From positions 1-63,095 of the forward strand of contig CALFCI010000031.1 in the NCBI GenBank assembly GCA_937951135.1: DNA of 63,095 nt, written 5' to 3'. Of the stretch, positions 46,367-63,095 are shown piece by piece. The translations under genes and the position numbers were made by a program. The notes beneath the pieces are model-generated. The model saw only the letters and a program-made list of their open reading frames with translations, had not been told where the DNA came from and did no database searches. The stretch is from an uncultured Aquimarina sp. (GTDB lineage Bacteria; Bacteroidota; Bacteroidia; Flavobacteriales; Flavobacteriaceae). Position 1 is the first letter of the stretch, and every line of letters starts with the position of its first letter.

Positions 46367-48307
46367 TTATTCTTTAATTTCTTGTATTGGCAGTTCTGGT
46401 GATGGCACATGACCTTTCTCTATAAGCCCTATATAACTTAGTAAAGCGCCCCAATGATAATATTTGTCACTGTTTTCTATATCATCTCCCTGTCCTGTTT
46501 CTGAATTGTAGTTTTCATAGATATGATTTTCTTTCAGCCATGATTTTAACAATAATGTTTCCGATTTTTCCACAATATCTTTTCTTGCCTTTGGCAGTTC
46601 GTAGTTTCTAATTCCCAAATAGACGAGAAAATTCATAGGAGCCCATATTCTGCCTCTCCAATAATTATTGTCCTTAAAGGCAGTATCATTTCTTGCGATA
46701 GAGGGTAAAATGTACGCTCCCCAAAATTCTTGAGGATTGTAAAAATGCTCCGCTATCATGCGATTTGCCTGTGCATCATCTGGTACTTTAGCTAAAAGAG
46801 GATAAAATAGGGTAGGGCTAAGTCTATAGCTAAATTCACCTGTGGCCAAATCTTTATTGAGGTACAGACCAAATTCATCGTTCCATAATGTTTTTAGTTT
46901 GTTTCTATATTTTGATTCACGCACCTTTAGTTCTTCTGCAATATCAGACTTGCCTAATTCTTCTGCTATTTCGGCCAAACTTTGACAATCCAAAATGTAA
47001 AGACTCATTAGACCAACATCTGCCAATTGCATAATATGGTTTTCCGCATCAAAACTTGCATCATCGTACATTGGAGAATTGTCTAGACCTGACTCCCACA
47101 ATGCCGCTTGTTTTTCACCGTTTTTTTGAGTCAACCATTCTGGATTATCCCCAGGATCGTAAGGATTGGATCCCCAGCAAAGATATCCATCAACATCTCT
47201 ATTTTTTTCCCACCAACGATTCCAACTCAGCAATTCATTGAATACTTCATGCAATAGCCATTTTTCTTTATGCTGCTTATAGATCTGTTTTATAATGTAG
47301 GATCCCACAGGAGGTTGTGAACGATCCTTACTCTTGGTGAAACCACAACTCCAATTTGGAATAAAACCTCCCTCGGTAATGTCCTTCGTAATCGCAAGGG
47401 CATTAGAATATGCTAGTTCTTTATTGTCTAAAGAAAGCATATAGGCAGCAAAATAGGTATCCCAATCAAATAACACCCATCCACCCCAAGTGGTATTCCA
47501 TATACGGCTTACTGGTGTAATGACCCTGTTATTGGTTGGTTCATAAATCAGATCCCATGCCAAGACGGACTGCGTGGAATTATACAATTCCGAAGATTCA
47601 CCATAGTTTGTTTTTATCTCGGCAAAAGCTGTCCTTGATTCTTTCATTATCTTTTCGATGTCCTCGACACTTTTATCCTTATCAGTAGAAATTGCGATAG
47701 GTTGATCCAAGGACGTTAAAATGGTATCAGAATTGGCCTCCCATTGATGCCCTACTACATAAGCTGTAATGGTTTTTGAAGGGGTTTGTGCCGTAATATT
47801 ATTTTCGATACTGACTACACCTTCTTTGTCCCATAACATTTTTGGATTGATGATCAACGAATCTCCATTAGTCGCCTTTATTGGAGTGACCAATACATAG
47901 AGCATATCATTTTTTGTTGCACTTTGGACTTGAACGGTAATATCTCGCCATTCCAATTTCAAGGAAGTATAGGAGCCATCATACGCATGGAAACCTGGAA
48001 TAACACGCTCTACATTATCTCCTCGTCTTCCTATCAATGCTTCTTCCAAAATATCGCCAGACTTGTTATCTTTTAACTGTAAGTCAATCGCAAAGCTTTC
48101 GGGAAGCAATACGTGTGACAACACACTTCTGGTATTCCAAGTGTTCCATCCCTTTGCAAGTTTGGTGGTTAAATCAATCATTTCATTCCCTGTAGGCTCA
48201 TTTTGCACTTCAGATTGTAATTCAGGTATTTTTTTAGGGGAATCTGCACAATTGAAAAACGGAAGAAATAAACATGCCGTTAAAATTTTTATTATCCTTT
48301 TGTTCAT
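46367..48307 (-). CDS. GH63/MGH1-like glycosidase lipoprotein
   Basis: 646 residues with a lipobox (LFLPFFNCADSPK). The (alpha/alpha)6-barrel text is that of GH63/YgjK-type exo-glucosidases: WNTTWGGWVLFDWDTYFAAY, GFIPNWSCGF, LWESGLDNSPMYDD (catalytic-acid region), YWRGRIWAPMNFLVYLG, and KYYHWGALLSYIGL near the end. Predicted periplasmic or surface alpha-glucosidase/mannosidase-type activity. It is separated from the haloperoxidase operon by an IS30 remnant, so it may not belong to that operon by origin although it is on the same strand. Confidence 0.88.
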   Translation of the reverse strand: MNKRIIKILTACLFLPFFNCADSPKKIPELQSEVQNEPTGNEMIDLTTKLAKGWNTWNTRSVLSHVLLPESFAIDLQLKDNKSGDILEEALIGRRGDNVERVIPGFHAYDGSYTSLKLEWRDITVQVQSATKNDMLYVLVTPIKATNGDSLIINPKMLWDKEGVVSIENNITAQTPSKTITAYVVGHQWEANSDTILTSLDQPIAISTDKDKSVEDIEKIMKESRTAFAEIKTNYGESSELYNSTQSVLAWDLIYEPTNNRVITPVSRIWNTTWGGWVLFDWDTYFAAYMLSLDNKELAYSNALAITKDITEGGFIPNWSCGFTKSKDRSQPPVGSYIIKQIYKQHKEKWLLHEVFNELLSWNRWWEKNRDVDGYLCWGSNPYDPGDNPEWLTQKNGEKQAALWESGLDNSPMYDDASFDAENHIMQLADVGLMSLYILDCQSLAEIAEELGKSDIAEELKVRESKYRNKLKTLWNDEFGLYLNKDLATGEFSYRLSPTLFYPLLAKVPDDAQANRMIAEHFYNPQEFWGAYILPSIARNDTAFKDNNYWRGRIWAPMNFLVYLGIRNYELPKARKDIVEKSETLLLKSWLKENHIYENYNSETGQGDDIENSDKYYHWGALLSYIGLIEKGHVPSPELPIQEIKE

Positions 48308-48517: not shown

Positions 48518-49423
48518 TTATTTTTTTAGTGGTAAATATATTTCCGCCTTCCAGTTAAGATCATCACCTCCAGAATGGGGGTCATTTAAAAAAACTTCCG
48601 TAGGCAAAATGTCTACTTTTATAGTATTCCTTTCAGCATAATCTATTAATGTATACCAACCTCTATCTGAAATACCATAGTGGCCATTGAATATCAACTT
48701 CAGTGCTTCTTTTTCATTGGTGCTTTTAACCTTTATTACGTCTGATTTAGGGTAATTATCTTCTTTTGATATTGGAAAACAAAAATCAAAAGTGATGCGA
48801 TCTTCATTTAAGTTCCAATCTGTGATTTCCAAAAAAGGATCTCCATTAAGCATAAGTTCATTAGTTTTAATATATTTCATAATAACAGATGTATACTTCA
48901 TCATTGCTTTTGCTTTTTCATGAAGTTTACAACTAGCTGTTATGTAAACCACATTTTTCTTAGGAAATATGGTTTTTTCTATTGATGAGACTTTATATTT
49001 TTTTTCATGAATCTTCAACACTTCTTTAATATTTTTAACCATAAGAATACTTCGATCAACAAATGCGGTTTTAAGAAAAGGAACTCTTAGTTTTTGAAAT
49101 AAACTATTTTCTTTATCCTTAAAAAAAGCAGTTACTTTCGTTATAGAATCAGATTTTTTTTGAATACACCAATCTATTTCAACAATGGAGTCAAAAACCT
49201 CTAGCTTATGAGACACTTCTGAAAAAGGTTTTTTAGCACGTATTGAGACCACTTTTTTAGATTTAGGTTCCCAATTGTTCCACCTCACCAAAGTATTGTA
49301 AACCACTCCTGGAGGATGATTTGTTTCAAAAGTTACTTTATAATCATAATCTTTTATGAAAAGATACCATAAAAGTGACATGGATACTACTGCTAAAAAA
49401 CCAAATAAGAATACTTTCTTCAT
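48518..49423 (-). CDS. SRPBCC-domain plus GyrI-like effector-binding protein, membrane anchored
   Basis: 301 residues: one N-terminal helix (VFLFGFLAVVSMSLLWYLFI), an SRPBCC/START-like domain (about 28-150; YKVTFETNHPPGVVYNTLVR, WNNWEPKSKK) and a C-terminal GyrI-like domain (about 155-300; NGDPFLEITDWNLNEDRITF; ALKLIFNGHYGISDRGWYTL; GDDLNWKAEIYLPL). GyrI-like domains bind hydrophobic small molecules. The start codon directly follows the stop of the haloperoxidase-like gene, so it is the last gene of that operon. A binder for the substrate or product is an inference. Confidence 0.75.
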   Translation of the reverse strand: MKKVFLFGFLAVVSMSLLWYLFIKDYDYKVTFETNHPPGVVYNTLVRWNNWEPKSKKVVSIRAKKPFSEVSHKLEVFDSIVEIDWCIQKKSDSITKVTAFFKDKENSLFQKLRVPFLKTAFVDRSILMVKNIKEVLKIHEKKYKVSSIEKTIFPKKNVVYITASCKLHEKAKAMMKYTSVIMKYIKTNELMLNGDPFLEITDWNLNEDRITFDFCFPISKEDNYPKSDVIKVKSTNEKEALKLIFNGHYGISDRGWYTLIDYAERNTIKVDILPTEVFLNDPHSGGDDLNWKAEIYLPLKK

Positions 49424-50767
49424 TTATAAATGTTTCATGTTTATTTTTTCGATTACAAATGAGCCTAGTTTTCTTCCTTGTTTAAGCCCTTCGTCTATTG
49501 CTGCTCTATAATGAATACCTCCATATAACCTACTTATTGCAGCTTCATCGGCTGCATTGTTAAATGATGTAAAGGTTCTAAGTGGCAGTCCATAAGGAGT
49601 TTCTGTGTCGTCTATAAAAATAAAATTGTCTCCAAAAATAGAGGTCAAAATAGTTGATGCTGACCCTGAAACAACGGAGTGACCGCTAGTATATTCAGGA
49701 AATGGTGGTGTTTGTAAAATAGGCATCCATTTTTCATCAATAAATTGATTTATTAGCGTCTCTGGTCGTATAAGGTTACTTCTGTATTTTTCGTCCCAGC
49801 AACTTATAAAAGCTTCAAAAATCCCTATGGATGTTTTTGTATAGGTATAAACAGCTTCTTCAAAACTGAAATTATTTTTTTTGCATGCAATTTTAGTAAT
49901 GCCGATCCAATGTGCGCCAGGGGTTATTTTTTTTTTTGCAAACATTAAATGACCTCTAGTAACGGAAACATACGGATTGCAATCCCAGAATTGTGCGATT
50001 TCAATCTCTTCACTTCCATCACCACGTTTAGTAATATCTTGAGTTACAGTGTAAACGTCTATAAGTTCTTTATAAAAATCGGAATCCTTTTCCATCGAAA
50101 ATTTTGGTGGTGGTATTGGTTTAAATTGTGAAGCAGAATCTAAAACCATAGTCCTAATTTTTTTCCAATGTGGTTCAATCCCATCCATATATGCAGGAGG
50201 TGTCGGTTGCCATCGAGACGGGTCATCAGTTTCTATAGTATACTTAGGCATGGTTCTCGTTTGGCTATAATTATCTTTATTCATCCATCCCTTAATATGA
50301 TTTGCAACTTTTAGCCCATAAGCTTCAGATGCTCTAAACTCTACTTCATTCTGATCTCTCCATAAATCATATATGCTATCTCTAAAGTGTATTACTTTAT
50401 CTTCAGAGAATACTAGTTCCTTGCTTAATTCCATGTGAGCGACTAAAGCTGATACATTAAAATTAACGGCATCATTATCGGCCTTAGGAATAGCCTTTAA
50501 ATCCTTTAATTGTCCAGCTAATGGTTTATAAATTGTACTATTTTGAGATAGGATCTCAAAAGCTGCAATATTAGGATATACATAAATTCTGCTGGCTACT
50601 GGTGGCGAAAAAATATCATGTACCATGATTTGGGTCACCATATCTATCGTACTGTAAAGATCATTGGAAGTCACTATTATAGGGTCTTTTTTAGGAGTAC
50701 ACCCTTGTAATATTACACATCCAAAAATGATTATAAAGACATTATTTAACTTGATATATTTGAACAT
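49424..50767 (-). CDS. Vanadium-haloperoxidase/PAP2-superfamily lipoprotein
   Basis: 447 residues with a lipobox (CVILQGCTPKK). All phosphate/vanadate-site residues of the superfamily are visible: Lys327 and Arg334 in KYRSNLIRPE, Ser361-Gly-His363 in PEYTSGHSVVSGSA, and Arg413 and His419 in SRLYGGIHYRAA. The protein could be a vanadium haloperoxidase or an acid phosphatase; sequence alone does not decide. The start lies 26 bp inside the preceding FG-GAP gene, so translation is coupled. Confidence 0.85.
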   Translation of the reverse strand: MFKYIKLNNVFIIIFGCVILQGCTPKKDPIIVTSNDLYSTIDMVTQIMVHDIFSPPVASRIYVYPNIAAFEILSQNSTIYKPLAGQLKDLKAIPKADNDAVNFNVSALVAHMELSKELVFSEDKVIHFRDSIYDLWRDQNEVEFRASEAYGLKVANHIKGWMNKDNYSQTRTMPKYTIETDDPSRWQPTPPAYMDGIEPHWKKIRTMVLDSASQFKPIPPPKFSMEKDSDFYKELIDVYTVTQDITKRGDGSEEIEIAQFWDCNPYVSVTRGHLMFAKKKITPGAHWIGITKIACKKNNFSFEEAVYTYTKTSIGIFEAFISCWDEKYRSNLIRPETLINQFIDEKWMPILQTPPFPEYTSGHSVVSGSASTILTSIFGDNFIFIDDTETPYGLPLRTFTSFNNAADEAAISRLYGGIHYRAAIDEGLKQGRKLGSFVIEKINMKHL

Positions 50768-53700
50768 TATCGTTATTAATTAGAGCGATTAAGTATATAT
50801 TGTTATTGACGGTTATTGTTCTTAATTTAGAAACTGCCTTGTTGAAAAAATCTAGTCCAATAGCATTCCCTAACTTTATATTGTTTTGGTCTAAAATAAG
50901 TGCTCCTGAAAAACTATCAAACCGACCATGATAAGGCTTAATACCAAAATAATTTCCTGCACATAAAACAGTTTCGTTTCCGCCGATGTTTATTTTAGTA
51001 AAACAATTAATTGGAGCTACTTGCAATTGATTTTGAAACGCTTCAAAAACAAATTTACCATTTTCATTTTTCAATATACCAGAAGCTAAAGTATGTACTT
51101 TAAAAACTTTTGCCTTGCTTAGAATCGTATCATCAAAAACGTTATTAATTGGTAATCCAGCAAAACTTTTATATGTGGTAAACTTTTTTTTAGTGAGACT
51201 TATAAGTTGAGCACTTAATTCATCTAAGTCTTCTATAGGATAGTATTTTTCTTTTTTCTCAACAGCAATAATAGTTTCTGTTTTGCCATTGTTATCAAAA
51301 TCTGAATAATACATTAATAAGGGATACTCTTGAGTTGCAGTAAACTTAGTATTTGTACCCCAATTTCCAAGAAGATAATCTAAGTCACCATCTTTATCGA
51401 TATCAAAAGGTATAATAGCACGCCATAAACCGTTTAAGGGTTTGGAAAGATATTTTTCTGATACATCAACAAAATCGCCATTGTTATTTTGTAAAAATAG
51501 AGGAGACATCCATTCTCCAACAAGTATTAAATCTGGTTTTTTATCGCTATTAAAATCTGTGACGGAAACATCTCTTATCATGCCTATATTTCCTAAGGTT
51601 CTTTTTACAAAAACTCCCTTTTTGTTTTCTAATATATAGCTTTCAGGAATATTACCAAAATCATTTGGCATCGTTGCATTACCGATGAATACATCTTGGT
51701 CACCGTCTAAATCAAAATCAAAATGTTTTACAATAGCTGTATCTTCGTAACCTTCGGGCATCTCAAATTCTTTGATACCATCACTAGTAATTTTAAATAA
51801 ATTATTTTGAAGTGCCGCAGATTTGCCAAAAAACTCACCACCTCCTGAACCAATAAACAATTCATTTTTGTTATCGTTGTCAAAATCAGCAATGGTTGCA
51901 CTGCCTTCCTCTATTATAGCCTTATTTTTAAAAATTGAATCTTCTAATTTTATAAATCCAGATTCGCTTTGAAGATAGATCTCAGATTTTTTATGCTTTC
52001 CATTGCCAAAAAAAACATCTTCTTTCCCATCATTATTTAAGTCACCAACAGCAATAGCTGGACCTCTATCTGAAATTTGATAAGGGATAAGTTTATGCCG
52101 GTTTGAGTCGATGTAGTTGTTCTCTGAATGGGTGTACTGAATCCCTAAATTATCTTTAGTTTTATAAAATATGCTATCCTTTTTTGAATGTAAAAAGGTA
52201 TAATTGAACTCTTTTTCTTTTGGATTAACGGAGACTGTTAAAGTTTGATTAACAGGGACATCTTTTAATATTTGAAATGTTTTGTTGGGCCAAATAACCT
52301 TAATAGAATCTATTTTTTGTAGGGTATCTAATCCAAAATGGAGTAGGGGTTGGCAAGATGATTGAAAACCTCTTTGAGTAAATAATTCTTTATATTGAAT
52401 GTTCTTATTTTGATATAAAAAGACCTTGGTTCCTATGCCAAAATAATTTTTTTGAAGGTAATTAAATTTTAATTGGATATAATTTTTTGTTGCATTTGTA
52501 TTATTTATGTAAATACTGGCAGGAGCATTTATGTTATTCGTTACAACATCTAAATCACCATCGTTATCTAAATCAGCATATGCAGAACCATTGGAATAGG
52601 TAGCGTTCTGTTCCACCCATTTATCGGTTGTATTTTCAAACTTCAAATCTTCATTGCCTTGAAAAAAGATGTTTTTCAACTTTCCATCTGGCATATAATT
52701 TAAAGCCTCTTTATCAATCAAATTAGTAGTTTCTATTTTTTTCTTAACTTGATCGTTGGAAATGTATTTTATATAATCTAAATCGTTTGGCCTTTTTGGA
52801 ATACCATTGGCAATAAAGACATCTTGTTTTGTATCTTGATTATAATCTGCAATTAAGGCACTCCAGCTCCAATCTGTAGCAGCAATAGTACTTAGGAAAG
52901 CTGTTTCCGTAAAATGACTTGCTGCTTGGTTGATTTGAACCATATTTCTAGCATACTGATGATGATACCCATATTGTTTAGTGCGTAAATTTTGAATTTG
53001 AATATTACCATCTCCAACAGAAGATTTTAATACTTTTTCTTCTTCTGGCAACATATCTAAAGTGATCAAATCGGTAAACCCATCGTTATTAATATCGGCG
53101 GCATCATTACCCATCGAAAATTTACTGGTATGTCCAAAATGCACTTTTAAACTTTCAGTAAATGTACCATCTCCATTATTTAAATAATAGTAGTCATCTT
53201 CATGAAAGTCATTACTCACATAAATATCTGGATATCCATCATTATTAAAATCAGAAATAGCCAGACCAAGTCCATAGCCGCTTGCGCTGCCATAAATACC
53301 CGCACTTTCACTTACATCTATAAATTTGTTATTGTCATTTCTAAAGAGCTTATCTCCACTTTGGTAATTTCTCTTGTTTCTAATACTAGCTTTACCAAAT
53401 GACTCCTCAGTATGTATAGCATGATTAAGTAAATACATATCTAAATCACCATCTAAATCATAATCAAAAAAAGAGACAGATGAACTATAATTATCGATAT
53501 CTAAACCATACGCATGTGCCTGTTCTGTAAATGTTAGATCACCATTGTTGATAAACAATTCATTTTGACCTACAAAACCATTGGTCCCTGTTACGGCGCA
53601 AACATAGATGTCTAATAAACCATCGCCATTCACATCTGCCATAGCCACGCCAGTATTCCAATCACTAGAACTATCGACATTAGCTTTAGCTGTTATGTCT

Positions 53701-53984
53701 TCAAATTTTAGATTTCCTTTATTTAGATATAACTTGTTTTGCTGTTGATTAGATGTGAAATAGATATCTGGAAGGTTATCGTTATTAATATCTCCTATTG
53801 CCACGCCTCCACCATTATAATAATAAAGATAGTCTAGGATAGTCTGACCTAATGTATCTTTTAAGGTATTATTAAAATAAATTTCTGAATCTTTAGCTTG
53901 TAAAATAGTAAATAGCTTGTCAGGCTTTTTAGTACAACCAATCAACAGCAAAAGGATACTAATATGTAACGTATATTTAATCAT
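50742..53984 (-). CDS. FG-GAP/VCBS-repeat plus ASPIC/UnbV lipoprotein, second of a tandem pair
   Basis: 1080 residues, lipobox LLLLIGCTKKPD. Many FG-GAP/VCBS blades with Ca-binding DxDxDG-type loops (GGGVAIGDINNDNLPDIYFT; YADLDNDGDLDVVTNN; DFDLDGDQDVFIG). A central ASPIC/UnbV module (FGIGTKVFLYQNKNI; RGFQSSCQPLLHFGLDTL) splits two beta-propeller halves. Strongly similar to the gene before it, hence a tandem duplication. The 8-bp overlap with that gene and the 26-bp overlap with the haloperoxidase gene show one transcript. Likely a surface-exposed propeller binding a ligand or scaffold. Confidence 0.9.
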   Translation of the reverse strand: MIKYTLHISILLLLIGCTKKPDKLFTILQAKDSEIYFNNTLKDTLGQTILDYLYYYNGGGVAIGDINNDNLPDIYFTSNQQQNKLYLNKGNLKFEDITAKANVDSSSDWNTGVAMADVNGDGLLDIYVCAVTGTNGFVGQNELFINNGDLTFTEQAHAYGLDIDNYSSSVSFFDYDLDGDLDMYLLNHAIHTEESFGKASIRNKRNYQSGDKLFRNDNNKFIDVSESAGIYGSASGYGLGLAISDFNNDGYPDIYVSNDFHEDDYYYLNNGDGTFTESLKVHFGHTSKFSMGNDAADINNDGFTDLITLDMLPEEEKVLKSSVGDGNIQIQNLRTKQYGYHHQYARNMVQINQAASHFTETAFLSTIAATDWSWSALIADYNQDTKQDVFIANGIPKRPNDLDYIKYISNDQVKKKIETTNLIDKEALNYMPDGKLKNIFFQGNEDLKFENTTDKWVEQNATYSNGSAYADLDNDGDLDVVTNNINAPASIYINNTNATKNYIQLKFNYLQKNYFGIGTKVFLYQNKNIQYKELFTQRGFQSSCQPLLHFGLDTLQKIDSIKVIWPNKTFQILKDVPVNQTLTVSVNPKEKEFNYTFLHSKKDSIFYKTKDNLGIQYTHSENNYIDSNRHKLIPYQISDRGPAIAVGDLNNDGKEDVFFGNGKHKKSEIYLQSESGFIKLEDSIFKNKAIIEEGSATIADFDNDNKNELFIGSGGGEFFGKSAALQNNLFKITSDGIKEFEMPEGYEDTAIVKHFDFDLDGDQDVFIGNATMPNDFGNIPESYILENKKGVFVKRTLGNIGMIRDVSVTDFNSDKKPDLILVGEWMSPLFLQNNNGDFVDVSEKYLSKPLNGLWRAIIPFDIDKDGDLDYLLGNWGTNTKFTATQEYPLLMYYSDFDNNGKTETIIAVEKKEKYYPIEDLDELSAQLISLTKKKFTTYKSFAGLPINNVFDDTILSKAKVFKVHTLASGILKNENGKFVFEAFQNQLQVAPINCFTKINIGGNETVLCAGNYFGIKPYHGRFDSFSGALILDQNNIKLGNAIGLDFFNKAVSKLRTITVNNNIYLIALINNDNVQIYQVK

Positions 53985-56900
53985 TGTTTATCTGGAATAT
54001 CTTTGGCTTTTTATTATTAACACCTACTAATATGAATGTTTTATCTGTATTTTTTAAAGTTGAAATATTTTTAACTTCACCCTGTACGAAAAAACCTGAT
54101 TTTGAATAGTCTACCCAGCTAAATTCTCCTTTTCCATCTCCTAAAAGTAAACTACCGTCATTTGCATCTAATCGTCCATATTGCGGTTTGAAACTGTATT
54201 CATTTCCTCCTAACAAAATATCTAAGTTTCCGTCAGTGTTTATATCTATGACGGAAATGGCATTGACACTTGAAAATTGAACTTGATTGGGTAATGGTAT
54301 CATCTTAAAATCACCTTCTTTTGTGTTTAGCAAAACAACGGACTGAGATATCGTAACTTCTCTAACTATAGATTGCGCAATAACTTCTTCAGAAAAAAGC
54401 TCTTGAATAGATTTAGTAGCATAATCTGAGAACTTTAAATTTTTCTTTTTTAAAGATACTATTTGAGACGTAAGTTCATTTTTAGTTAGTACAGGAATAT
54501 CTTTTGTGCCTATGGTTTCTGTAACAATTTGCTCTATAGTTCCATTGTTATCAAAATCATTAATGTATATTTTAATAGGTTTTTCTTGCGTAGGTTTATA
54601 GGGTATGTTTAAACCACTATTTCCGACTATTAAATCTGGTAGCCCATCGTTATTTAAATCTGCAACCTCAATAGTGTTCCACCAGCCTTGTACAGTACTT
54701 AAATTAGAGTCATAATGAATTAGTTGCTTCCCTGTATTTTTAAATATTGTTGGAGTTCCCCAATCCGTAACAATAATTAAATCCTTTTTTCCATCATCAT
54801 TAAAATCGTGCCATTTTGCATCTGTAACCATTCCTATATTTTTCAACGCATAGGCTTTACTATTGGTGATATTTCTAAAATTACCTTTCCCATCATTTTC
54901 CAACAATTGATGTTTTGCATTAATACCATACACTGCTGGCATGCTTCTACTTCCAACAAATACATCTACATCACCATCATCATCAAAATCAAACGGTGCT
55001 ATTATAGCGGTATTATTAAACGTTGAAGGAATTGGTTCTTGTCGTTTCGAGAACGTCCCAGTGCCATCGTTTATATATAATCTTGTTTTATACTGTTTCT
55101 CATCTTCTATTTCGTTACCACCAGAACCGATCATAAGGTCAATATCTCCATCATTGTCAGCATCAAAAAATGCCGATGCGGTATCTTCTAAATTAGTGTC
55201 TTGACTAAAATTTTGGCTTTTATTAAGCTTAAATTTGCCTGAGGTTGTTTGAAAGTAAAGTTTTGCAACCTGTCCTTTAGCACCACCTATAAAAACATCT
55301 TCAAGCCCATCATTATTGATATCACTAACAGCTATAGTTGGCCCTTCTTTTGAAGTCATTTGTTGTATTAGGCCTTCATAATTAAAATCTACATGATTGT
55401 TTTCTTTATGTAGGTCAAAAGAAGAACCTGTTAATTCTGAAAAATAAGGAGCTTGTTTCTTAGAAATCAAAGATTTTTTTAATGCATCTTCTTGCTTAAG
55501 AATATATTGTTTGTTTGGTGTGATCTCCTTTACAGTTTGCGATGTGCCATCTGACCATAAAACAGTAAGTGAGTCAATTTTTTTGTTGCCAATTCCAATG
55601 GTTTGAATATAATCCATAGAGGATTGAAATCCTCTTGAAGGAATAACTTCTTGTAGAATAATTTCATTATTTGTATAAAGTTTGATTGTACTTCCAATAC
55701 CAAAAATATTAGTTTGATTACCTTTCAACTTTATCTTTATATACTTGTTTTTTGTAAGTAAGTTTGTATTGTTTCTATACACTAAAGCATGTTGATTTAC
55801 ATTGTTGATTACTAAATCTAAATCACCATAAGCAGCACCGTTAGAAAACGTGAGTTTATTGAATCCCCAAGAAGATGTTTCGTTACTGAATGTAAGGTTT
55901 CCGGAGTTTTTGAATGCGTAGTTACTGATAGCTGTACTTGGCATTTTGTTTATAATATTCTCAACTTCCTCCTTTTTACCCGTGATCACCATATTTTGAA
56001 TAATCTCATCTGCAAAAAAATTCATAAAATCTAGGTTGGTTAAATCGCGATAGATACCATTACAAACAAATATGTCTTTATACCCATCATTATCCATATC
56101 AAACATTAGTGCTCCCCAACTCCAATCTGTTTTTGAAACACCACTAAAACTTGCAATTTCATTTAACTTATTAGTACCACTATTAAGCTGTAATGTGTTT
56201 TGCATGTATTGATGATAAAAATCTAAATTTTGTTTTCTTCGATATAGATCATAATTTTCAAACTGAGTGGTTTCTTTTAAGCGTTTATTTTTTTCTGGAA
56301 GCATATCCGTAACATAAACATCTGGTTTTCCATCATTATTAATGTCTGCCATATCGGCTCCCATTGAAAAATGGCTGGTATGTTTCATCCACTCTTTAAT
56401 AGATTCTTTATAAGTACCGTCTTGATTATTAATATAGAGGTAGTCTCGTTCATAAAAATCATTCGAGACATAAATATCTGGGTAATTATCATTATTAATG
56501 TCTCCAACCGTTACACCAAGGCCAAAACCGATTAAACTACCAAAAATTCCAGCTTCTTCACTCACATCCACAAATTTTCCATTGTCATTACGGAAAAGCT
56601 TATCTCCGCCGCCCTTAAGTAATTCTGGCACATCCCAATCTTCATCACGTAATTCTCTTTTATTAGAATAATTTAATAAGTTAGCTGGAATAAAACTATT
56701 ATTGAGTATATAAGCATCTAAATCGCCGTCCTTATCATAATCAAAAAAAGCTGCATGAGTAGTTAATCCAGTTTCAGCTAGATTATATTCTTTAGCTTTT
56801 TCAGTAAAAGTCAAGTCGCCATTATTAATGAATAATTCATTTTTTAAATTATTTCCTTTAACGTTTCCGGCGTTACAGACGTAGATGTCTAATAAACCAT

Positions 56901-57306
56901 CGGTATTGATATCTACCATAACAACTCCTGTAGACCAAGTGTTTTTACCTTCAATATGTGCAGATTCTGAAATATCTTGAAATTTTAAATTTCCTTTGTT
57001 AAGAAATAATTTGTTTTTGGATTGATTGGCAGTAAAATAAATATCTGGTAAACCATCATTATTGATATCACCTATGGCAACACCGCCACCATTATAAAAA
57101 TTTCGATAGGTGAAAATATTGAAGTCTTTTTGATTCTCTATTGAATTCATAAACGCTATGCCTGTAGTATTAGGGTCTAGGTTTGTAAATAATAAATCTA
57201 ACTTATTGTTAGTAGGTGTTTCTTTATTGCATGAAAAAAAGCATAGGCATAAAAAAAAGAAAATAATCTTTTTCCAAATCATTATAAATTGATGTTTAGT
57301 AAGCAT
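53977..57306 (-). CDS. FG-GAP/VCBS-repeat plus ASPIC/UnbV lipoprotein, first of a tandem pair
   Basis: 1109 residues with the same layout as its neighbour: lipobox CLCFFSCNKET, FG-GAP blades (GGGVAIGDINNDGLPDIYFT; SFDYDKDGDLDAYILN-type loops) and an ASPIC/UnbV module (FGIGSTIKLYTNNEI; SRGFQSSMDYIQTIGIG). The ATG at 57282 (MIWKKIIFFF) gives a tidier signal sequence than 57306. One blade is damaged: the loop reads GAAYGDLDLVINN at about residues 491-503, where the sister gene has YADLDNDGDLDVVTNN, i.e. six residues including the Ca-binding turn are missing. Function of the family is unknown. Confidence 0.9.
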   Translation of the reverse strand: MLTKHQFIMIWKKIIFFFLCLCFFSCNKETPTNNKLDLLFTNLDPNTTGIAFMNSIENQKDFNIFTYRNFYNGGGVAIGDINNDGLPDIYFTANQSKNKLFLNKGNLKFQDISESAHIEGKNTWSTGVVMVDINTDGLLDIYVCNAGNVKGNNLKNELFINNGDLTFTEKAKEYNLAETGLTTHAAFFDYDKDGDLDAYILNNSFIPANLLNYSNKRELRDEDWDVPELLKGGGDKLFRNDNGKFVDVSEEAGIFGSLIGFGLGVTVGDINNDNYPDIYVSNDFYERDYLYINNQDGTYKESIKEWMKHTSHFSMGADMADINNDGKPDVYVTDMLPEKNKRLKETTQFENYDLYRRKQNLDFYHQYMQNTLQLNSGTNKLNEIASFSGVSKTDWSWGALMFDMDNDGYKDIFVCNGIYRDLTNLDFMNFFADEIIQNMVITGKKEEVENIINKMPSTAISNYAFKNSGNLTFSNETSSWGFNKLTFSNGAAYGDLDLVINNVNQHALVYRNNTNLLTKNKYIKIKLKGNQTNIFGIGSTIKLYTNNEIILQEVIPSRGFQSSMDYIQTIGIGNKKIDSLTVLWSDGTSQTVKEITPNKQYILKQEDALKKSLISKKQAPYFSELTGSSFDLHKENNHVDFNYEGLIQQMTSKEGPTIAVSDINNDGLEDVFIGGAKGQVAKLYFQTTSGKFKLNKSQNFSQDTNLEDTASAFFDADNDGDIDLMIGSGGNEIEDEKQYKTRLYINDGTGTFSKRQEPIPSTFNNTAIIAPFDFDDDGDVDVFVGSRSMPAVYGINAKHQLLENDGKGNFRNITNSKAYALKNIGMVTDAKWHDFNDDGKKDLIIVTDWGTPTIFKNTGKQLIHYDSNLSTVQGWWNTIEVADLNNDGLPDLIVGNSGLNIPYKPTQEKPIKIYINDFDNNGTIEQIVTETIGTKDIPVLTKNELTSQIVSLKKKNLKFSDYATKSIQELFSEEVIAQSIVREVTISQSVVLLNTKEGDFKMIPLPNQVQFSSVNAISVIDINTDGNLDILLGGNEYSFKPQYGRLDANDGSLLLGDGKGEFSWVDYSKSGFFVQGEVKNISTLKNTDKTFILVGVNNKKPKIFQINND

Positions 57307-57356
57307 AAAAAGATGGTGTCATCAGAAACAATTAAAATTCGAATACATGTTAAAGT

Positions 57357-57388
57357 AAAAAAGGGGGGTATATACCCCCCTTTTTTTT
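57357..57388. terminator. Terminator of the SusCD operon
   Basis: A 32-bp near-perfect palindrome: AAAAAAGGGGGGTATA and its complement TATACCCCCCTTTTTTTT. It lies 38 bp after the susD-like stop and before the UnbV operon. It implies separate transcription of the downstream operon, or attenuation. Confidence 0.93.
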
Positions 57389-57425
57389 ACTCTGAGAACA
57401 GAGGTTAAACTAATTTAAAATAACC

Positions 57426-58946
57426 TTAATACCCAGGGTTTTGTACTAAATTTGGATTAGTACTTAACGCTGGAGCTGGTATTGGATATATTAATCTTGT
57501 TCTATCTGATGTGTTAGATTTTTGTTGCACTGGATCTAGGAATGTTCCAAAACGAATTTGGTCATTACGTCTCCATCCTTCCCAATACAACTCTCTAGAA
57601 CGTTCATCTAAAATATCATCTAATGAAGTTCCTGTATAAACAGCATCAACACCCCTTGCAGCTCTTAACGTAGTTAATGGTGCTGTAGGATCACCGCCCA
57701 TTCTTGCCATGGCTTCCGCTTTCATTAAATATACATCTGCAAGTCTAAAAAATACGTAATCATTTGCTGGTCTCTCAAAATTAGTCAAATCAGGCACGTA
57801 TTTTACCACACGAATTCCTTTCGAATCCGCTGAGTTTGCGATGTCAAAATCTCTAGTAAAATTCATTAAGTCACCTGGCCTATCAAAAAGATTATTACCA
57901 TCTTGATCAAGTTGCTGTCCAATTAAAAATCCTACATTCAATCCAGTTACATCTGTAACACCCGTGTAGCTTCCACCTATTCTTGGATCCGTACTATCAA
58001 ATTTATCATATAAATCTGTTAAAGTGACAAACCCATTCCAACCGCCAGGATTATGATTTTCATTTAAGGTCATATAATGCATTCTTCTCAACTCACCTCC
58101 GGTGGTATTATCATTTTCCGAAACAAATATATTTTCGGTAGCTATGTCTGTATTATTTGCTGCAAAACTATCAAAGTAATTGGCTTGCAATGTAAAAGGT
58201 CCGCCTATAACGATATCACAGTAGTCAATTGCTTTCTGCATATCAGCACTGTCAAAAGTATATGGTCCTACCTGAGGTGTTCCATCTTCATCTGTAGCTT
58301 TGTAAACGGCTTTATTTAAATACAACTTAGCCAATAATGTTGCTGCAACATATTGATTTACAGTATTATTTGCTGAAGAATTTGGCAAATCAGCAAATAC
58401 ATCTTCTAATTGAGAAATAGCTAAATCTATTGCTTCTGCTCTTTTTAGAACAATAGGAAGGTCTGCATAGCTAGAACCTGGTTCTCTATACGGTACTTGT
58501 CCCCATAAATCGATGTTATAGAACATATAAAAACTAGAATAAAATGTAGCTACAGCTTTTTGTTCAGTTGTGGGATCATTTGATAATGCATCAATTGCAG
58601 CAAATAACCCTCCCAAGTTTTGATCCCAAGAACCTATAATTACAGAATGTGAAGAATTCCATTCATGTAAATGAAGGTCTCTCCATATACCACCATCATC
58701 CCAATTGGGTCCTCTAGTAGGTCCTGCCATTTCATCAGTAGGGTGTTCTAACAAAGCAAATTGAAAACTACTTGAATTCTGGAATGCCCTTAGTTGAGTG
58801 TAAGCAGCTGATAGTTGTCCTGTAACTACTGTTTGACTACTTAGACCACTTTCTTCAAAAACTCCGTCTAAATCTTCCTCTAAATCGGTACACGAAAAGA
58901 GGAATAAGGTACTAATTGTAAAAACTATATATTTTTTCATAATCAT
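57426..58946 (-). CDS. SusD/RagB-family nutrient-binding surface lipoprotein
   Basis: 506 residues, lipobox LFLFSCTDLEED. The typical SusD text is present: LSAAYTQLRAFQNSSS near the N-terminus, four TPR helices, and the C-terminal RSRELYWEGWRRNDQIRFGTF with YPIPAPALSTNPNLVQNPGY. It caps the SusC barrel and binds the imported ligand. An ATG two codons on (58940) is an equally good start. It ends the SusCD operon before a strong terminator. Confidence 0.94.
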   Translation of the reverse strand: MIMKKYIVFTISTLFLFSCTDLEEDLDGVFEESGLSSQTVVTGQLSAAYTQLRAFQNSSSFQFALLEHPTDEMAGPTRGPNWDDGGIWRDLHLHEWNSSHSVIIGSWDQNLGGLFAAIDALSNDPTTEQKAVATFYSSFYMFYNIDLWGQVPYREPGSSYADLPIVLKRAEAIDLAISQLEDVFADLPNSSANNTVNQYVAATLLAKLYLNKAVYKATDEDGTPQVGPYTFDSADMQKAIDYCDIVIGGPFTLQANYFDSFAANNTDIATENIFVSENDNTTGGELRRMHYMTLNENHNPGGWNGFVTLTDLYDKFDSTDPRIGGSYTGVTDVTGLNVGFLIGQQLDQDGNNLFDRPGDLMNFTRDFDIANSADSKGIRVVKYVPDLTNFERPANDYVFFRLADVYLMKAEAMARMGGDPTAPLTTLRAARGVDAVYTGTSLDDILDERSRELYWEGWRRNDQIRFGTFLDPVQQKSNTSDRTRLIYPIPAPALSTNPNLVQNPGY

Positions 58947-58951
58947 TATTT

Positions 58952-61900
58952 TTAGAAATTTAAATTTAATCCGAATGAGAATGAGCGCGATCTTGGGTAT
59001 CCTGAATATTCAATACCAAAAGAAGGAACTCCTCTTAATTGCTTATTTGCATTTACTTCAGGATCAAAACCACTATAAGGTGTGATTATAAACAAGTTTT
59101 GACCTGTTATAAAAAAACGAGCGTTGCTTAAATATTTACCAACCTTACCTAGCTTTTCAGTATTTATTGTATAGCCAATAGTTGCATTTGAAAGCCTAAA
59201 GAAATCTCCAGACTCTAAGAATCTTGTTGAAATAGTTGGGCTTGAACCAGGGTCTTCTCCATTACCAGGAATATTAGTAGTAACATTTCCCCCACTATTA
59301 AAAGCAGAAGCATTAAATAATGCATTGGCCGTATTGTTATATATTTCATGACCATAGGCCCCGTAACCATTTAGAGATAGATCCCAGTCTTTATAATTTG
59401 CTCTTATAAATAATCCAATATTAAGATCTGGATTAGGATCACCAACAAATTGTCTATCACTCACACCCCCAGGTTGATCGAAATTAGTATTTACTACACC
59501 ATCTCCATTGGTGTCCGCATAAATAGGTGCACCACTAGTAGAGTCAAATCCTTCGAATACAGGAAGATAAAACGCATATAGCGGTTGATCATCAAACAAT
59601 AATTGTAAAGTCTGACCTGAAAGCCCTTGACCATTTACAGCTCCTGTTAGGGTTCCAGAATTAGCAAAAGCTTCTTTACCATTAATTTCATTCTTTAGGA
59701 AAGAAACATTACCACCAATTTCAAGTGTAAAATCATCGTTTTCAATGACTTGGTAATTTAATCCAACTTCAACTCCTGAATTTATAATCTCATCGCTAAA
59801 GTTTGCCCAAGAGAAAGATCCAACGGGACCAGGTTGTGCAACTGATAACCTAAATAATAAGTCATCTGTATTCTTTCTAAAATAATCTATATTACCTGAA
59901 AATCGACCATCATTAATTTCAAAATCTAAACCAAAGTTTAATTGCGTAGTGGTTTCCCATTTCAAATCAGGGTTTCCAATATTTAAACGTGTAACACCAC
60001 CGCCATCTAAAGGAGCAAAAACTTCTCTTGACGCTTCTGCATTAAACTGTTGATTACCAGTTTGACCCCATCCAGCTCTAAGTTTCAATTCACTAATCGC
60101 TTCTGGTAAAAATCCTTCTTCATGAACTTTCCATGCTGCAGCAAAAGCTGGGAAATAACCATACTTATTATTCGTACCAAATCTACTAGAGCCATCAGCT
60201 CTTACCGTTGCCGTTAGAATGTATTTGTTTTTGATGTTAAATATTCCACGGGCAAAAAATGACTGTAATGAAATGGGTACAAATCCTACTTGGTTTGTTG
60301 CCGCAGTACCAGCTGCCGCTATAGGTGAAGGTGGAATATAAGAAGCAGATGAATAATCAAGTCTTTCAACTGTATTTCCAGCATAAATATTATCTAAATA
60401 AATTGATTGATCATCAAAATCAAAATCCCGTATCGTAAGATTTTCTCCACTCCCAGTATATTCTTCATAAGAGTGTCCAACAACCGCATTTATTTTAAAA
60501 TTATCACTAATTTCCTTATCAAAACTCAGCGTATTAGAAAACAATTGATTTGTAAATCTATTGTTTTGAATATTTGCATATCCTCTGTCTAGACTAGTAG
60601 GTGATACAAACAGTCTTGAAATAGCGATACCTCTTCTTGTATTTGTTCTGTCAAAACCATACGTAAATTGATATTTTAAGTAATTCGTGAAATTAATAGT
60701 AGCTTTAACATTTCCAAATAATTTTGTGGTTTCTGTATCATCACTGAAATAGTCTAAAAGTGCTACCGGATTTCTCTCATTATTTGATTGTTGATTATAT
60801 GTTCCATCTGGATTGGTAAAAGACCGAGTTGGATTCCATCTTAATGCAGATAATAATAAATCTCCATTTGCTCCACTAGTTTCAGATAAAGCTGTTGCCT
60901 CACTTTCAATTTGTGAAGCCGTTATATTTGCAGATATTTCTAGAATATCGTCAAAAAAGTCTTGAGATACACTCGTATTTAATGTGTATTTATCTAAATC
61001 TGTATTTTTAATAATACCTTCCTGATTAAGAACTCCTAAAGACACTCGATATTTACCTTTGTCTGACCCACCAGCATAAGATAAATTATGTTCAGTAGTA
61101 ATAGCAGTTCGTAGAATTGCATCAAAAGCATTTACATCTGAGCCTTCATTCGCAGCTGGATTACCAGCAGCAAACTCTGAAGCACTTAAAAGATCATAGT
61201 CATTTGCTACCGATGCAGTGGTGGTTGTAAAAGAATAGTTAAGTTTAGGATCTCCTCTTTTACCTGATTTAGTCGTAACTATTATTACTCCATTCGCTGC
61301 ACGTGAACCGTATATAGCTGTTGAAGAAGCATCTTTAAGTATCGAGATCGACTCAATATCATTAGAGTTAATAAAGTTTAATGGGTTTTTTGCACTACTT
61401 CCCCCAAGAAAAGTACCTGTACTAGCACCCGGAGAATTACTACCATCATTAAAAGGTACTCCATCAATAACATATAGTGGATTGTTACCAGATCTTACAG
61501 AAGAAGAACCTCGAATTCTTATGGTAGCACCAGCTCCTGGCTCTCCACTAGAGGTAGTAACTTGAACACCTGCAGATCTACCTTGTAGTAATTGCTCTGG
61601 TGAGGTAACTACACCCTTGTTAAAACCTTCAGCGCTAACAACAACAACAGCACCAGTAGCATCTTTCTTAGAAGCAGTACCATAACCTATAACAACAACT
61701 TCACCAAGGCTTGATGCATCTTCTTCCAATGCTATGTTTAAATTGCTTTGCCCATTAACGGGTACTTCTTTGATTGCAAAACCGATATAAGAAACCACTA
61801 AGATTGGGTTGTCTCCATTAACCGTAATGGAAAAATTTCCATCAAAATCTGTGATTACTCCATTCGTCGTATCTTTTTCAAGAATACTAGCTCCTGGAAG

Positions 61901-62119
61901 TGGCTGACCTGATGCATCAACTACAGTACCATTTATTTCTGACTGTTGGTTGTTTACGGTTTCACTTGAATTAGTATCTCTTTTGTTTTCATTAGCGTAT
62001 GAATTGTTTGGTGTTATACCAAATACAGTCGTACATAATAAGAATATAAAAGTTCTCATAATCATGACTAGCGCCCGTTTTCCCAGAAGGGGACGAACTT
62101 TTTTTAATTTAAATTTCAT
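58952..62119 (-). CDS. SusC/RagA-family TonB-linked outer-membrane transporter
   Basis: 1055 residues: a long signal region (hydrophobic core MIMRTFIFLLCTTVFGI from residue 19), a CarboxypepD_reg-like domain (INGTVVDASGQPLPGASILE), the SusC linker LGEVVVIGYGTASKKDATGA, a plug (SPEQLLQGRSAGVQVTTSSG; IRIRGSSSVRSGNNPLYVID) and a large barrel ending SFSFGLNLNF. Imports an oligomer with its SusD-like partner, encoded 5 bp downstream. No sugar-specific enzymes are in the same transcript, so the ligand is unknown. No anti-sigma/sigma pair or SARP-type regulator lies nearby. Confidence 0.95.
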   Translation of the reverse strand: MKFKLKKVRPLLGKRALVMIMRTFIFLLCTTVFGITPNNSYANENKRDTNSSETVNNQQSEINGTVVDASGQPLPGASILEKDTTNGVITDFDGNFSITVNGDNPILVVSYIGFAIKEVPVNGQSNLNIALEEDASSLGEVVVIGYGTASKKDATGAVVVVSAEGFNKGVVTSPEQLLQGRSAGVQVTTSSGEPGAGATIRIRGSSSVRSGNNPLYVIDGVPFNDGSNSPGASTGTFLGGSSAKNPLNFINSNDIESISILKDASSTAIYGSRAANGVIIVTTKSGKRGDPKLNYSFTTTTASVANDYDLLSASEFAAGNPAANEGSDVNAFDAILRTAITTEHNLSYAGGSDKGKYRVSLGVLNQEGIIKNTDLDKYTLNTSVSQDFFDDILEISANITASQIESEATALSETSGANGDLLLSALRWNPTRSFTNPDGTYNQQSNNERNPVALLDYFSDDTETTKLFGNVKATINFTNYLKYQFTYGFDRTNTRRGIAISRLFVSPTSLDRGYANIQNNRFTNQLFSNTLSFDKEISDNFKINAVVGHSYEEYTGSGENLTIRDFDFDDQSIYLDNIYAGNTVERLDYSSASYIPPSPIAAAGTAATNQVGFVPISLQSFFARGIFNIKNKYILTATVRADGSSRFGTNNKYGYFPAFAAAWKVHEEGFLPEAISELKLRAGWGQTGNQQFNAEASREVFAPLDGGGVTRLNIGNPDLKWETTTQLNFGLDFEINDGRFSGNIDYFRKNTDDLLFRLSVAQPGPVGSFSWANFSDEIINSGVEVGLNYQVIENDDFTLEIGGNVSFLKNEINGKEAFANSGTLTGAVNGQGLSGQTLQLLFDDQPLYAFYLPVFEGFDSTSGAPIYADTNGDGVVNTNFDQPGGVSDRQFVGDPNPDLNIGLFIRANYKDWDLSLNGYGAYGHEIYNNTANALFNASAFNSGGNVTTNIPGNGEDPGSSPTISTRFLESGDFFRLSNATIGYTINTEKLGKVGKYLSNARFFITGQNLFIITPYSGFDPEVNANKQLRGVPSFGIEYSGYPRSRSFSFGLNLNF

Positions 62120-63035: not shown

Positions 63036-63095
63036 TGCGGGCGGAGAGACTCGAACTCTCACACCTTGCGGCACTAGATCCTAAGTCTGGTATAT
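63036..63095 (-). tRNA. tRNA-Leu (anticodon UAG), 3' part, truncated by the window end
   Basis: On the minus strand: anticodon arm with loop CTTAGGA (anticodon TAG), long variable arm TGCCGCAAGGTGTG as in class II tRNAs, T-arm GAGAGTTCGAGTCTCTC and acceptor CGCCCGC plus discriminator A. CCA is not encoded. The D-arm and 5' acceptor lie beyond base 63095. One anticodon-stem pair appears mismatched (C-A), which should be checked in the full sequence. Confidence 0.85.

What the first reader, a model, noticed from the sequence alone, without database searches (positions are those of the whole stretch)
48518..62119. SusC/SusD plus tandem UnbV propeller lipoproteins plus haloperoxidase-like lipoprotein: candidate undescribed surface system
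Six minus-strand genes in tight order: SusC, SusD, then (after a strong terminator) two giant FG-GAP/ASPIC-UnbV lipoproteins, a vanadium-haloperoxidase/PAP2-type lipoprotein with every oxyanion-site residue, and an SRPBCC+GyrI-like small-molecule binder. The last four are chained by overlaps of 8 and 26 bp and by abutting stop/start codons. Five of the six carry lipoprotein or outer-membrane export signals. No glycan-specific enzyme is in the operon, so this is not an ordinary polysaccharide locus. My inference is capture, chemical modification (halogenation or dephosphorylation) and import of a non-sugar or phosphorylated ligand. The pairing of UnbV proteins with SusCD recurs, as far as I recall, in Bacteroidota but without an assigned role.
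Basis: partly seen in the sequence, partly recalled or inferred. Interest (0 to 1): 0.72.

Follow-up and report, generated by a model that had tools for sequence, protein, structure and literature searches.

The report
Sugar-uptake operon carrying an iodoperoxidase
Many marine Flavobacteriaceae carry, inside a gene cluster for taking up and breaking down small sugars and starch-like glucans, a fixed set of giant propeller lipoproteins plus an enzyme of the iodine-oxidising type, which ties a bacterial enzyme of unknown purpose to sugar feeding and makes that purpose testable.

Summary
In 60 hand-picked related loci, SusC-SusD lies upstream of the haloperoxidase (VHPO) gene in 47, an FG-GAP/UnbV gene directly 5' in 51, the SRPBCC/GyrI gene directly 3' in 37. 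VHPO was found in 133 of 299 Flavobacteriaceae genomes. UnbV-VHPO adjacency recurs outside the family (11 of 20 loci). The VHPO aligns end to end with the crystallised Zobellia enzyme 4CIT/4USZ; active-site residues are kept in 140 of 140 aligned sequences. Best reading: an alpha-glucoside/alpha-glucan locus with an added envelope oxidation module (UnbV, iodoperoxidase, SRPBCC/GyrI). A phosphatase role is less likely: the PAP2 aspartate is absent from all 140 aligned sequences. Surface exposure of UnbV and VHPO is unproven. The oxidant's purpose is inferred, not shown. My literature searches listed no description of the combination.

The parts
58952..62119 (-). SusC/RagA TonB-dependent transporter, 1055 aa
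   Evidence: TIGR04056 722 bits; best solved relative 8AA4 (384 bits), next the levan SusC family 5T3R (345 bits); PMC7618045 lists 8AA4 as the dextran utilisome
57426..58946 (-). SusD-type substrate-binding lipoprotein, 506 aa, LFSC|TDLEED
   Evidence: PF07980; best solved relative by single sequence is SusD 3CK7; acidic residues after Cys
57364..57380 (-). terminator-like hairpin between susD and the first UnbV gene
   Evidence: 5 G-C pairs followed by a T run
53977..57306 (-). FG-GAP/UnbV lipoprotein UnbV1 (position -2 from VHPO), 1109 aa
   Evidence: PF13517, PF07593; 12 DxDxDG-type loops; clade of position -2 proteins
50742..53984 (-). FG-GAP/UnbV lipoprotein UnbV2 (position -1 from VHPO), 1080 aa
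   Evidence: PF13517, PF07593; AlphaFold model pLDDT 85.8, best PDB fold CRTAC1 9ETN E 5.5e-26; clade of position -1 proteins
49424..50767 (-). VIPO1-type vanadium haloperoxidase lipoprotein, 447 aa
   Evidence: 4CIT/4USZ E 2.9e-204 over residues 12-444; catalytic residues kept in 140 of 140 aligned sequences
48518..49423 (-). membrane-anchored SRPBCC-like + GyrI-like protein, 301 aa
   Evidence: PF06445; model with N-terminal helix 2-23; Foldseek hits to rhodamine-, closthioamide- and albicidin-binding proteins
46367..48307 (-). GH63/GH37/MGH1-type glycoside hydrolase lipoprotein, 646 aa, 210 nt downstream; likely part of the locus
   Evidence: PF22422, PF01204, PF03200; 2Z07, YgjK, trehalase relatives; a hydrolase with the same Pfam domain (PF22422) between UnbV and VHPO in locus L281
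46242..46273 (-). terminator-like hairpin after the hydrolase gene
   Evidence: 13-pair stem, 4 of them G-C
45420..46178 (+). DeoR-family regulator, possible regulator of the flanking glycerol genes
   Evidence: PF00455, PF08220; same DeoR-GlpD-GlpK set near VHPO in G350 and G229
43423..44994 (-). glycerol-3-phosphate dehydrogenase (GlpD-like)
   Evidence: PF01266, PF16901; relatives near other VHPO loci
41879..43381 (-). glycerol kinase (GlpK-like)
   Evidence: PF00370, PF02782; GlpK relative directly after the SRPBCC/GyrI gene in 6 of 16 same-genus loci

Best explanation
It is an alpha-glucoside/alpha-glucan utilisation locus (a PUL of the Sus type) with a dedicated envelope oxidation module. 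SusCD imports short alpha-linked sugars or glycosides; nearby hydrolases cleave them. The UnbV double-propeller lipoproteins act as Ca2+-dependent scaffolds or glycan-binding accessories in the place that SusE/F-like proteins take elsewhere, and hold the VIPO1-type enzyme. That enzyme uses H2O2 to oxidise iodide (perhaps bromide) to hypohalous acid at the envelope during sugar feeding, which removes H2O2 and makes a short-range biocide or iodinating agent. The inner-membrane SRPBCC/GyrI protein binds aromatic, probably halogenated, by-products. Shown here: gene order, conservation, sugar-gene linkage, intact active site, predicted folds. Inferred: iodide oxidation by this very protein (from its relative), Ca2+ binding, scaffolding, the by-product role, the biological purpose.
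For: Order conserved: SusC-SusD upstream in 47 of 60, UnbV directly 5' in 51 of 60, SRPBCC/GyrI directly 3' in 37 of 60; whole order in 15 of 16 same-genus loci fetched, 14 of them with a GH13-labelled gene directly before SusC. UnbV positions -1, -2, -3 fall into separate clades, 6 label changes against a shuffled mean of 45. Sugar linkage: 26 of 47 SusCD loci have GH13/32/37/65/97/100 within the ~34 kb read, 29 LacI, 40 some sugar gene in a broad sense. Trehalase is single-copy in the 25 genomes that have it, of 30 tested, yet lies in 16 of 60 loci (binomial 3e-19 at a 34 kb in 3.7 Mb background, relatedness ignored). The best GH65 gene lies 9-30 kb from VHPO in 15 of 16 named genomes tested. 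SusC/SusD nearest solved relatives are glucan binders, by a modest margin. Enzyme: 4CIT/4USZ, residues 140 of 140. UnbV in 133 of 133 VHPO+ genomes against 101 of 166 others.
Against: No activity, expression or localisation data for this organism. In 21 of 47 SusCD loci no such hydrolase was seen in the stretch read; 13 of 60 loci have VHPO without an upstream SusCD. In 14 of 32 other genomes of the same genus no VHPO match was found at E 1e-20, so the module is dispensable. The flanking sugar genes change from locus to locus: the closest relative, L026, has a xylulokinase-like gene, xylose isomerase, a sugar transporter and a melibiase-like gene instead. The acidic surface-export stretch is not typical of UnbV or VHPO, so both may face the periplasm. 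SusC's second-best solved relative is a fructan (levan) system, and two other SusDs outrank 3CK7 with the family profile. Whether the window SusD keeps the starch-binding residues was not tested. The 60 loci were picked by hand from 144 matches.
Confidence: 0.5

Rival explanations
1. The PAP2-type lipoprotein is a phosphatase that strips phosphate from phosphorylated glucans or sugars before uptake.
For: Pfam calls it PAP2; phosphatases and vanadium haloperoxidases share the oxyanion site (recalled); the locus is a sugar locus.
Against: Best relative by far is an enzyme deposited as a vanadium-dependent haloperoxidase, and the 2014 paper titled on the Zobellia vanadium iodoperoxidase is cited in PMC9296495 (reference list seen). 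The aspartate four residues after the last His, part of the PAP2 signature (recalled) and present in 1QHB (alignment), is Ala in 139 of 140 aligned sequences and Gly in one.
Confidence: 0.12
2. One reading: surface capture, halogenation and import of a non-sugar ligand.
For: Haloperoxidase type and an aromatic-ligand type GyrI fold are both present; the window interval itself holds no hydrolase.
Against: Sugar-gene neighbourhood in many relatives, glucan-type SusC/SusD relatives, hydrolase 210 nt downstream.
Confidence: 0.1
3. The VHPO is an H2O2- or halogen-stress shield, merely co-regulated with sugar uptake because algal sugars and algal oxidative bursts come together; UnbV proteins serve glycan binding only.
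For: PMC9296495 reports induction of ROS defence and of vIPO3 on Ascophyllum (passages seen). UnbV with SusCD also occurs without VHPO.
Against: VHPO is tied to UnbV even without SusCD in the stretch read (single UnbV-VHPO pairs in G199, G233, G322) and in other Bacteroidota families; 133 of 133 VHPO+ genomes have UnbV, which suggests joint work of the two proteins.
Confidence: 0.2
4. Neighbouring genes without functional link.
For: Flanking sugar genes vary between loci.
Against: Tight gaps (median UnbV-UnbV -8, UnbV-VHPO 4, VHPO-SRPBCC/GyrI 6 nt), order kept over many genera and families.
Confidence: 0.02

Closest known systems
Zobellia galactanivorans vanadium iodoperoxidase VIPO1 (PDB 4CIT, 4USZ)
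   Same: Near full-length homology, same active-site residues by alignment; relatives in Z. russellii and Z. uliginosa sit in the order UnbV-UnbV-UnbV-VHPO-SRPBCC/GyrI, and in Z. amurskyensis the same order holds with UnbV2 and VHPO in one long ORF
   Different: Described as an enzyme; I saw no account of its gene neighbourhood (the 2014 paper itself is not held)
alpha-glucan PUL with open-type SusD, Muricauda sp. MAR_2010_75 (PMC11093988)
   Same: GH13, GH65, SusC, SusD close together by locus tag (sections 7 and 11 read); in 10 of 10 named Flagellimonas/Muricauda/Allomuricauda genomes tested a GH65 gene lies 17-26 kb 5' of VHPO, room for the same layout
   Different: The paper's main text holds none of haloperoxidase, FG-GAP, VCBS, CRTAC; that its locus continues into UnbV-VHPO-SRPBCC/GyrI is my inference
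Bacteroides Sus and dextran/levan utilisomes (PMC7618045)
   Same: SusCD with accessory lipoproteins and hydrolases as one uptake unit (passages seen)
   Different: No UnbV or haloperoxidase in those systems as recalled
CRTAC1 / ASPIC-UnbV family
   Same: FG-GAP propeller plus UnbV domain; best PDB match by sequence (UnbV1) and by fold (UnbV2) is CRTAC1 9ETN
   Different: Bacterial protein is a lipoprotein about twice as long, with a further beta-rich half
Iodine uptake of Arenibacter sp. C-21 (PMC5064120)
   Same: Marine flavobacterium; iodine uptake needs glucose, O2 and Ca2+ and is H2O2-linked; genome has at least five 4USZ homologues (whole text read)
   Different: No genes were assigned there; the link to this operon is my hypothesis

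Membership tests
Polysaccharide/oligosaccharide utilisation locus (PUL) | adjacent susC and susD | tested here: met
   TIGR04056 and PF07980, 5 nt apart
Polysaccharide/oligosaccharide utilisation locus (PUL) | linked carbohydrate-active enzymes | tested here: met
   GH63/37/MGH1-type gene 210 nt downstream in the window; GH genes in 26 of 47 SusCD relatives
Polysaccharide/oligosaccharide utilisation locus (PUL) | induction by a glycan | not testable with these tools
   needs RNA-seq or proteomics
alpha-glucan-binding SusD | starch-binding residues of B. thetaiotaomicron SusD | not tested
   only overall similarity: 3CK7 is the best single-sequence hit, third with the family profile
VIPO1-type vanadium haloperoxidase | K, R, SGH, R and H of the vanadate site | tested here: met
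   140 of 140 sequences aligned, window included
VIPO1-type vanadium haloperoxidase | iodide oxidation | not testable with these tools
   inferred from 4CIT/4USZ
PAP2 phosphatase | Asp at His+4 of the third motif (recalled signature) | tested here: not met
   Ala in 139 of 140 aligned sequences, Gly in 1
ASPIC/UnbV (CRTAC1-like) | FG-GAP repeats plus UnbV domain | tested here: met
Surface-exposed Bacteroidota lipoprotein | acidic export stretch after the lipid-bearing Cys | tested here: inconclusive
   two or more acidic residues at +2..+6: SusD 83%, UnbV 39%, VHPO 41% (rough lipobox finder)
GyrI-like small-molecule binders | GyrI-like fold | tested here: met
   PF06445; Foldseek E 3.3e-9 to a rhodamine-binding protein
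SRPBCC superfamily (N-terminal half of the last gene) | family hit or fold match | tested here: inconclusive
   no Pfam hit; order of predicted elements fits; only weak Foldseek matches to ARO/CYC proteins, TM 0.23-0.28

The most novel reading that the evidence does not exclude
The UnbV-VHPO-SRPBCC/GyrI module is the gene basis of the sugar-, Ca2+- and H2O2-dependent iodine oxidation and accumulation seen in marine Flavobacteriaceae such as Arenibacter C-21. Sugar taken up or released by the same locus feeds a sugar oxidase that makes H2O2, the Ca2+-binding UnbV propellers hold the iodoperoxidase, and oxidised iodine is fixed or imported: sugar feeding coupled to iodine chemistry. Weak hints in favour: a kinase-6PGD fusion (kinase half gluconokinase-like by inference) and a GntP-family permease directly beside the cluster in G072/L027, and a GMC oxidoreductase with a gluconate-dehydrogenase subunit in 3 of 60 loci. 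Against: the one Arenibacter locus seen, L075, has VHPO and UnbV, but no SRPBCC/GyrI gene or linked GH65 was found there.
Probability: 0.15. Interest if true: 0.85.

Novelty: new variant of a known kind. Interest (0 to 1): 0.56.

Why it matters
A bacterial iodoperoxidase of this type has a solved structure but, as far as I know, no established physiological role. Finding one in 133 of 299 Flavobacteriaceae genomes, locked to UnbV proteins and often placed in sugar-uptake loci, gives it a genetic context and simple tests (grow on glycogen, trehalose or sucrose with iodide; delete the gene). It also gives UnbV double-propeller lipoproteins a definite partner and suggests that published alpha-glucan PULs may end too early. 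If the iodine reading holds, marine sugar turnover would be tied to iodine chemistry.

Tried and rejected
Rejected: chance clustering; phosphatase as first choice; non-sugar ligand. An early guess of mine that the recurrent 550-aa ORF was masked sequence was wrong: it is a sodium:solute symporter. The cluster label 'GlpD' (c50) for the gene after SRPBCC/GyrI in six same-genus loci was wrong: it is glycerol kinase. One distant locus (L274) first seemed to lack UnbV and VHPO because long antisense ORFs hid them; mended by an unpruned scan.

Led nowhere: paper searches for UnbV with SusD/haloperoxidase, CRTAC1/SusC and UnbV/TonB, for haloperoxidase with PUL and for VIPO1 locus tags listed no paper on this combination; searches matched hundreds of papers each, of which only the top 8-25 were shown. 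The open library lacks most subscription journals, so absence there proves little.

Limits: the 60 loci (57 genomes) were chosen by hand from 144 matches, favouring long contigs and different genera, with several low-identity ones on purpose. The 140 aligned VHPOs include the window, 60 unnamed and 79 named loci that partly come from the same genomes (e.g. L027 and G072), so they are not independent. Gene calling was a longest-ORF script, so small or antisense-masked genes may be missed. The 30 genomes were picked with trehalase-bearing loci first (15 of the 25 trehalases found lie near VHPO); the 16-of-60 figure does not depend on that pick. GH65 distances come ranges and positions; contig identity was taken from matching coordinates. 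The one miss of 16 is Arenibacter (L075); Cellulophaga (L073) has GH65 on the 3' side, about 9 kb away; three genomes have a second, weaker GH65.


Full report
WHAT IS THERE. Families: SusC (TIGR04056), SusD (PF07980), two FG-GAP/UnbV proteins, a PAP2-superfamily protein, a GyrI-like protein. The window is a whole contig (63,095 bases) of a 3.1 Mb assembly, 78% complete, in which only these two UnbV domains were found. The closest named relative is an uncultured Maribacter contig (L026, VHPO 94% identical). The contig ends 976 nt before susC, so what lies further upstream cannot be seen.

THE ENZYME. The PAP2-type lipoprotein aligns over residues 12-444 with PDB 4CIT/4USZ, deposited as a vanadium-dependent haloperoxidase (E 2.9e-204). 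The 2014 paper titled on the Zobellia vanadium iodoperoxidase appears in a reference list that I saw but is not held. The vanadate-site residues are identical in 140 of 140 aligned sequences, window included. The aspartate four residues after the last histidine, which PAP2 phosphatases have (recalled) and which 1QHB has in the alignment, is Ala in 139 and Gly in one. This favours a peroxidase over a phosphatase.

THE UNBV PROTEINS. The AlphaFold model of UnbV2 (pLDDT 85.8) is a long, mostly beta protein whose best PDB match is CRTAC1 (9ETN, E 5.5e-26). UnbV1 and UnbV2 carry 12 and 9 DxDxDG-type loops, the usual Ca2+ site of FG-GAP repeats (recalled). In a FastTree tree of 99 proteins from canonical loci, positions -1, -2 and -3 before VHPO fall into separate clades with few exceptions (6 label changes where 2 is the least possible; shuffled mean 45.3). 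The window has lost, or never had, the third.

THE LAST GENE. The 301-aa protein has an N-terminal helix and two globular parts (model pLDDT 92.6). The C-terminal part matches proteins that bind rhodamine, closthioamide and albicidin; the N-terminal part fits SRPBCC only by its order of elements. Its orthologue (E <= 1e-39; next match 5e-16) occurs in 84 of 133 VHPO+ genomes and in 2 of the other 166; 80 of 86 lie directly 3' of VHPO.

HOW WIDESPREAD. VHPO (E <= 1e-100) is in 133 of 299 Flavobacteriaceae genomes. Within the window's genus it is patchy: 18 of 32 other genomes have a match at E 1e-20, one of them weak. In 80 named loci, kept from 389 found, UnbV is seen in 74 and the SRPBCC/GyrI gene in 72, some loci being cut by contig ends. 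In 16 same-genus loci fetched, SusC-SusD-UnbV-VHPO-SRPBCC/GyrI is kept in 15, with a gene of the GH13 (SusG-type amylase) cluster directly before SusC in 14. In 60 hand-picked loci: SusC-SusD upstream 47, UnbV directly 5' 51, UnbV anywhere 58, SRPBCC/GyrI directly 3' 37. In 20 loci from 17 other Bacteroidota families, UnbV lies on the same strand within 105 nt of VHPO in 11, and one gene away in two more; in seven none was seen. All 133 VHPO+ genomes also have UnbV, against 101 of 166 without VHPO (Fisher p 2e-20, relatedness not corrected). UnbV is not bound to VHPO: in six genomes without VHPO 25 of 60 UnbV genes follow a SusD, though none in two of the six.

SUGAR CONTEXT. In the window, a GH63/GH37/MGH1-type hydrolase gene follows after 210 nt, then a DeoR regulator, GlpD and GlpK. 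The same DeoR-GlpD-GlpK set stands near VHPO in G350 and G229, and GlpK directly follows the SRPBCC/GyrI gene in 6 of 16 same-genus loci; a glycosyl-glycerol is a fair guess for the local substrate. In locus L281, from another family, a hydrolase with the MGH1-like domain sits between UnbV and VHPO. Among the 47 SusCD-bearing loci, 26 have GH13/32/37/65/97/100 genes, 29 LacI, 10 xylose isomerase or xylulokinase, 40 some sugar gene in a broad sense (regulators and symporters counted); of the 13 without SusCD one has such a GH gene and 8 some sugar gene. Trehalase is single-copy in the 25 of 30 genomes that have it yet lies in 16 of 60 loci (expected about 0.6). In 16 named genomes (Flagellimonas, Muricauda, Allomuricauda, Zobellia and others) the best GH65 gene lies 9-30 kb from VHPO in 15. 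SusC's best solved relative is 8AA4, the dextran utilisome, with the levan SusC family not far behind; SusD's is SusD 3CK7, though with the family profile two other SusD homologues rank above it. A 2024 study describes in Muricauda an alpha-glucan PUL with GH13, GH65, SusC and an open-type SusD; its main text mentions no haloperoxidase, FG-GAP, VCBS or CRTAC protein. It also reports that SusC and SusD there were highly expressed on glycogen and on xylan alike, which speaks for a broad rather than a glucan-specific induction. I infer that it is the left half of this locus.

HOW IT MAY WORK. Shown: composition, order, conservation, sugar linkage, intact active site, predicted folds. Inferred: the SusCD pair imports alpha-glucosides; UnbV proteins replace SusE/F-like accessories and hold VHPO; VHPO oxidises iodide with H2O2 during feeding; the SRPBCC/GyrI protein handles aromatic by-products. 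Where VHPO and UnbV face is open: the acidic surface signal is common in SusD (83%) but not in UnbV (39%) or VHPO (41%). The boldest reading links this to Arenibacter C-21, whose iodine uptake needs glucose, oxygen and Ca2+ or else an H2O2 source, with a proposed glucose oxidase and haloperoxidase. Gluconate-type genes beside the cluster in G072/L027 and a GMC oxidoreductase near three loci fit but are few.

VERDICT. New variant of a known kind (a PUL), interest 0.56.

Noticed in passing
window 63036-63095: The contig end reads like a truncated tRNA-Leu gene on the minus strand (by eye); ARAGORN reports no tRNA in the window, and the contig stops at 63095.
   Followed up: partly
L039:16858-18051 and relatives (cluster c5, 21 of 60 loci): A gene with an HD domain and a Pycsar-effector transmembrane domain (PF18967) is a stable neighbour of the cluster in many genomes; possibly a defence or signalling gene.
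   Followed up: no
L076:12833-16546 and relatives (cluster c4, 21 of 60 loci): A 1237-aa protein joining a metallophosphoesterase and a ShlB-like barrel, stable neighbour of the cluster.
   Followed up: no
L276, L277, L279: In other Bacteroidota families the order is SusC, SusD-like_2, a ~194-aa protein (redoxin-like in L277), a ~440-aa protein (weakly copper-monooxygenase-like in L277), UnbV, VHPO: a redox-flavoured variant of the module.
   Followed up: partly
loci such as L033, L097, G240, G212: VHPO stands close behind xylulokinase-like, xylose isomerase and sodium:solute symporter genes, without UnbV directly between.
   Followed up: partly
window 32607-33617: GH113-type glycoside hydrolase gene elsewhere in the window.
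   Followed up: no
window 36889-39708: A second TonB-dependent receptor gene with a 440-aa neighbour (35539-36861) that has no Pfam match.
   Followed up: no
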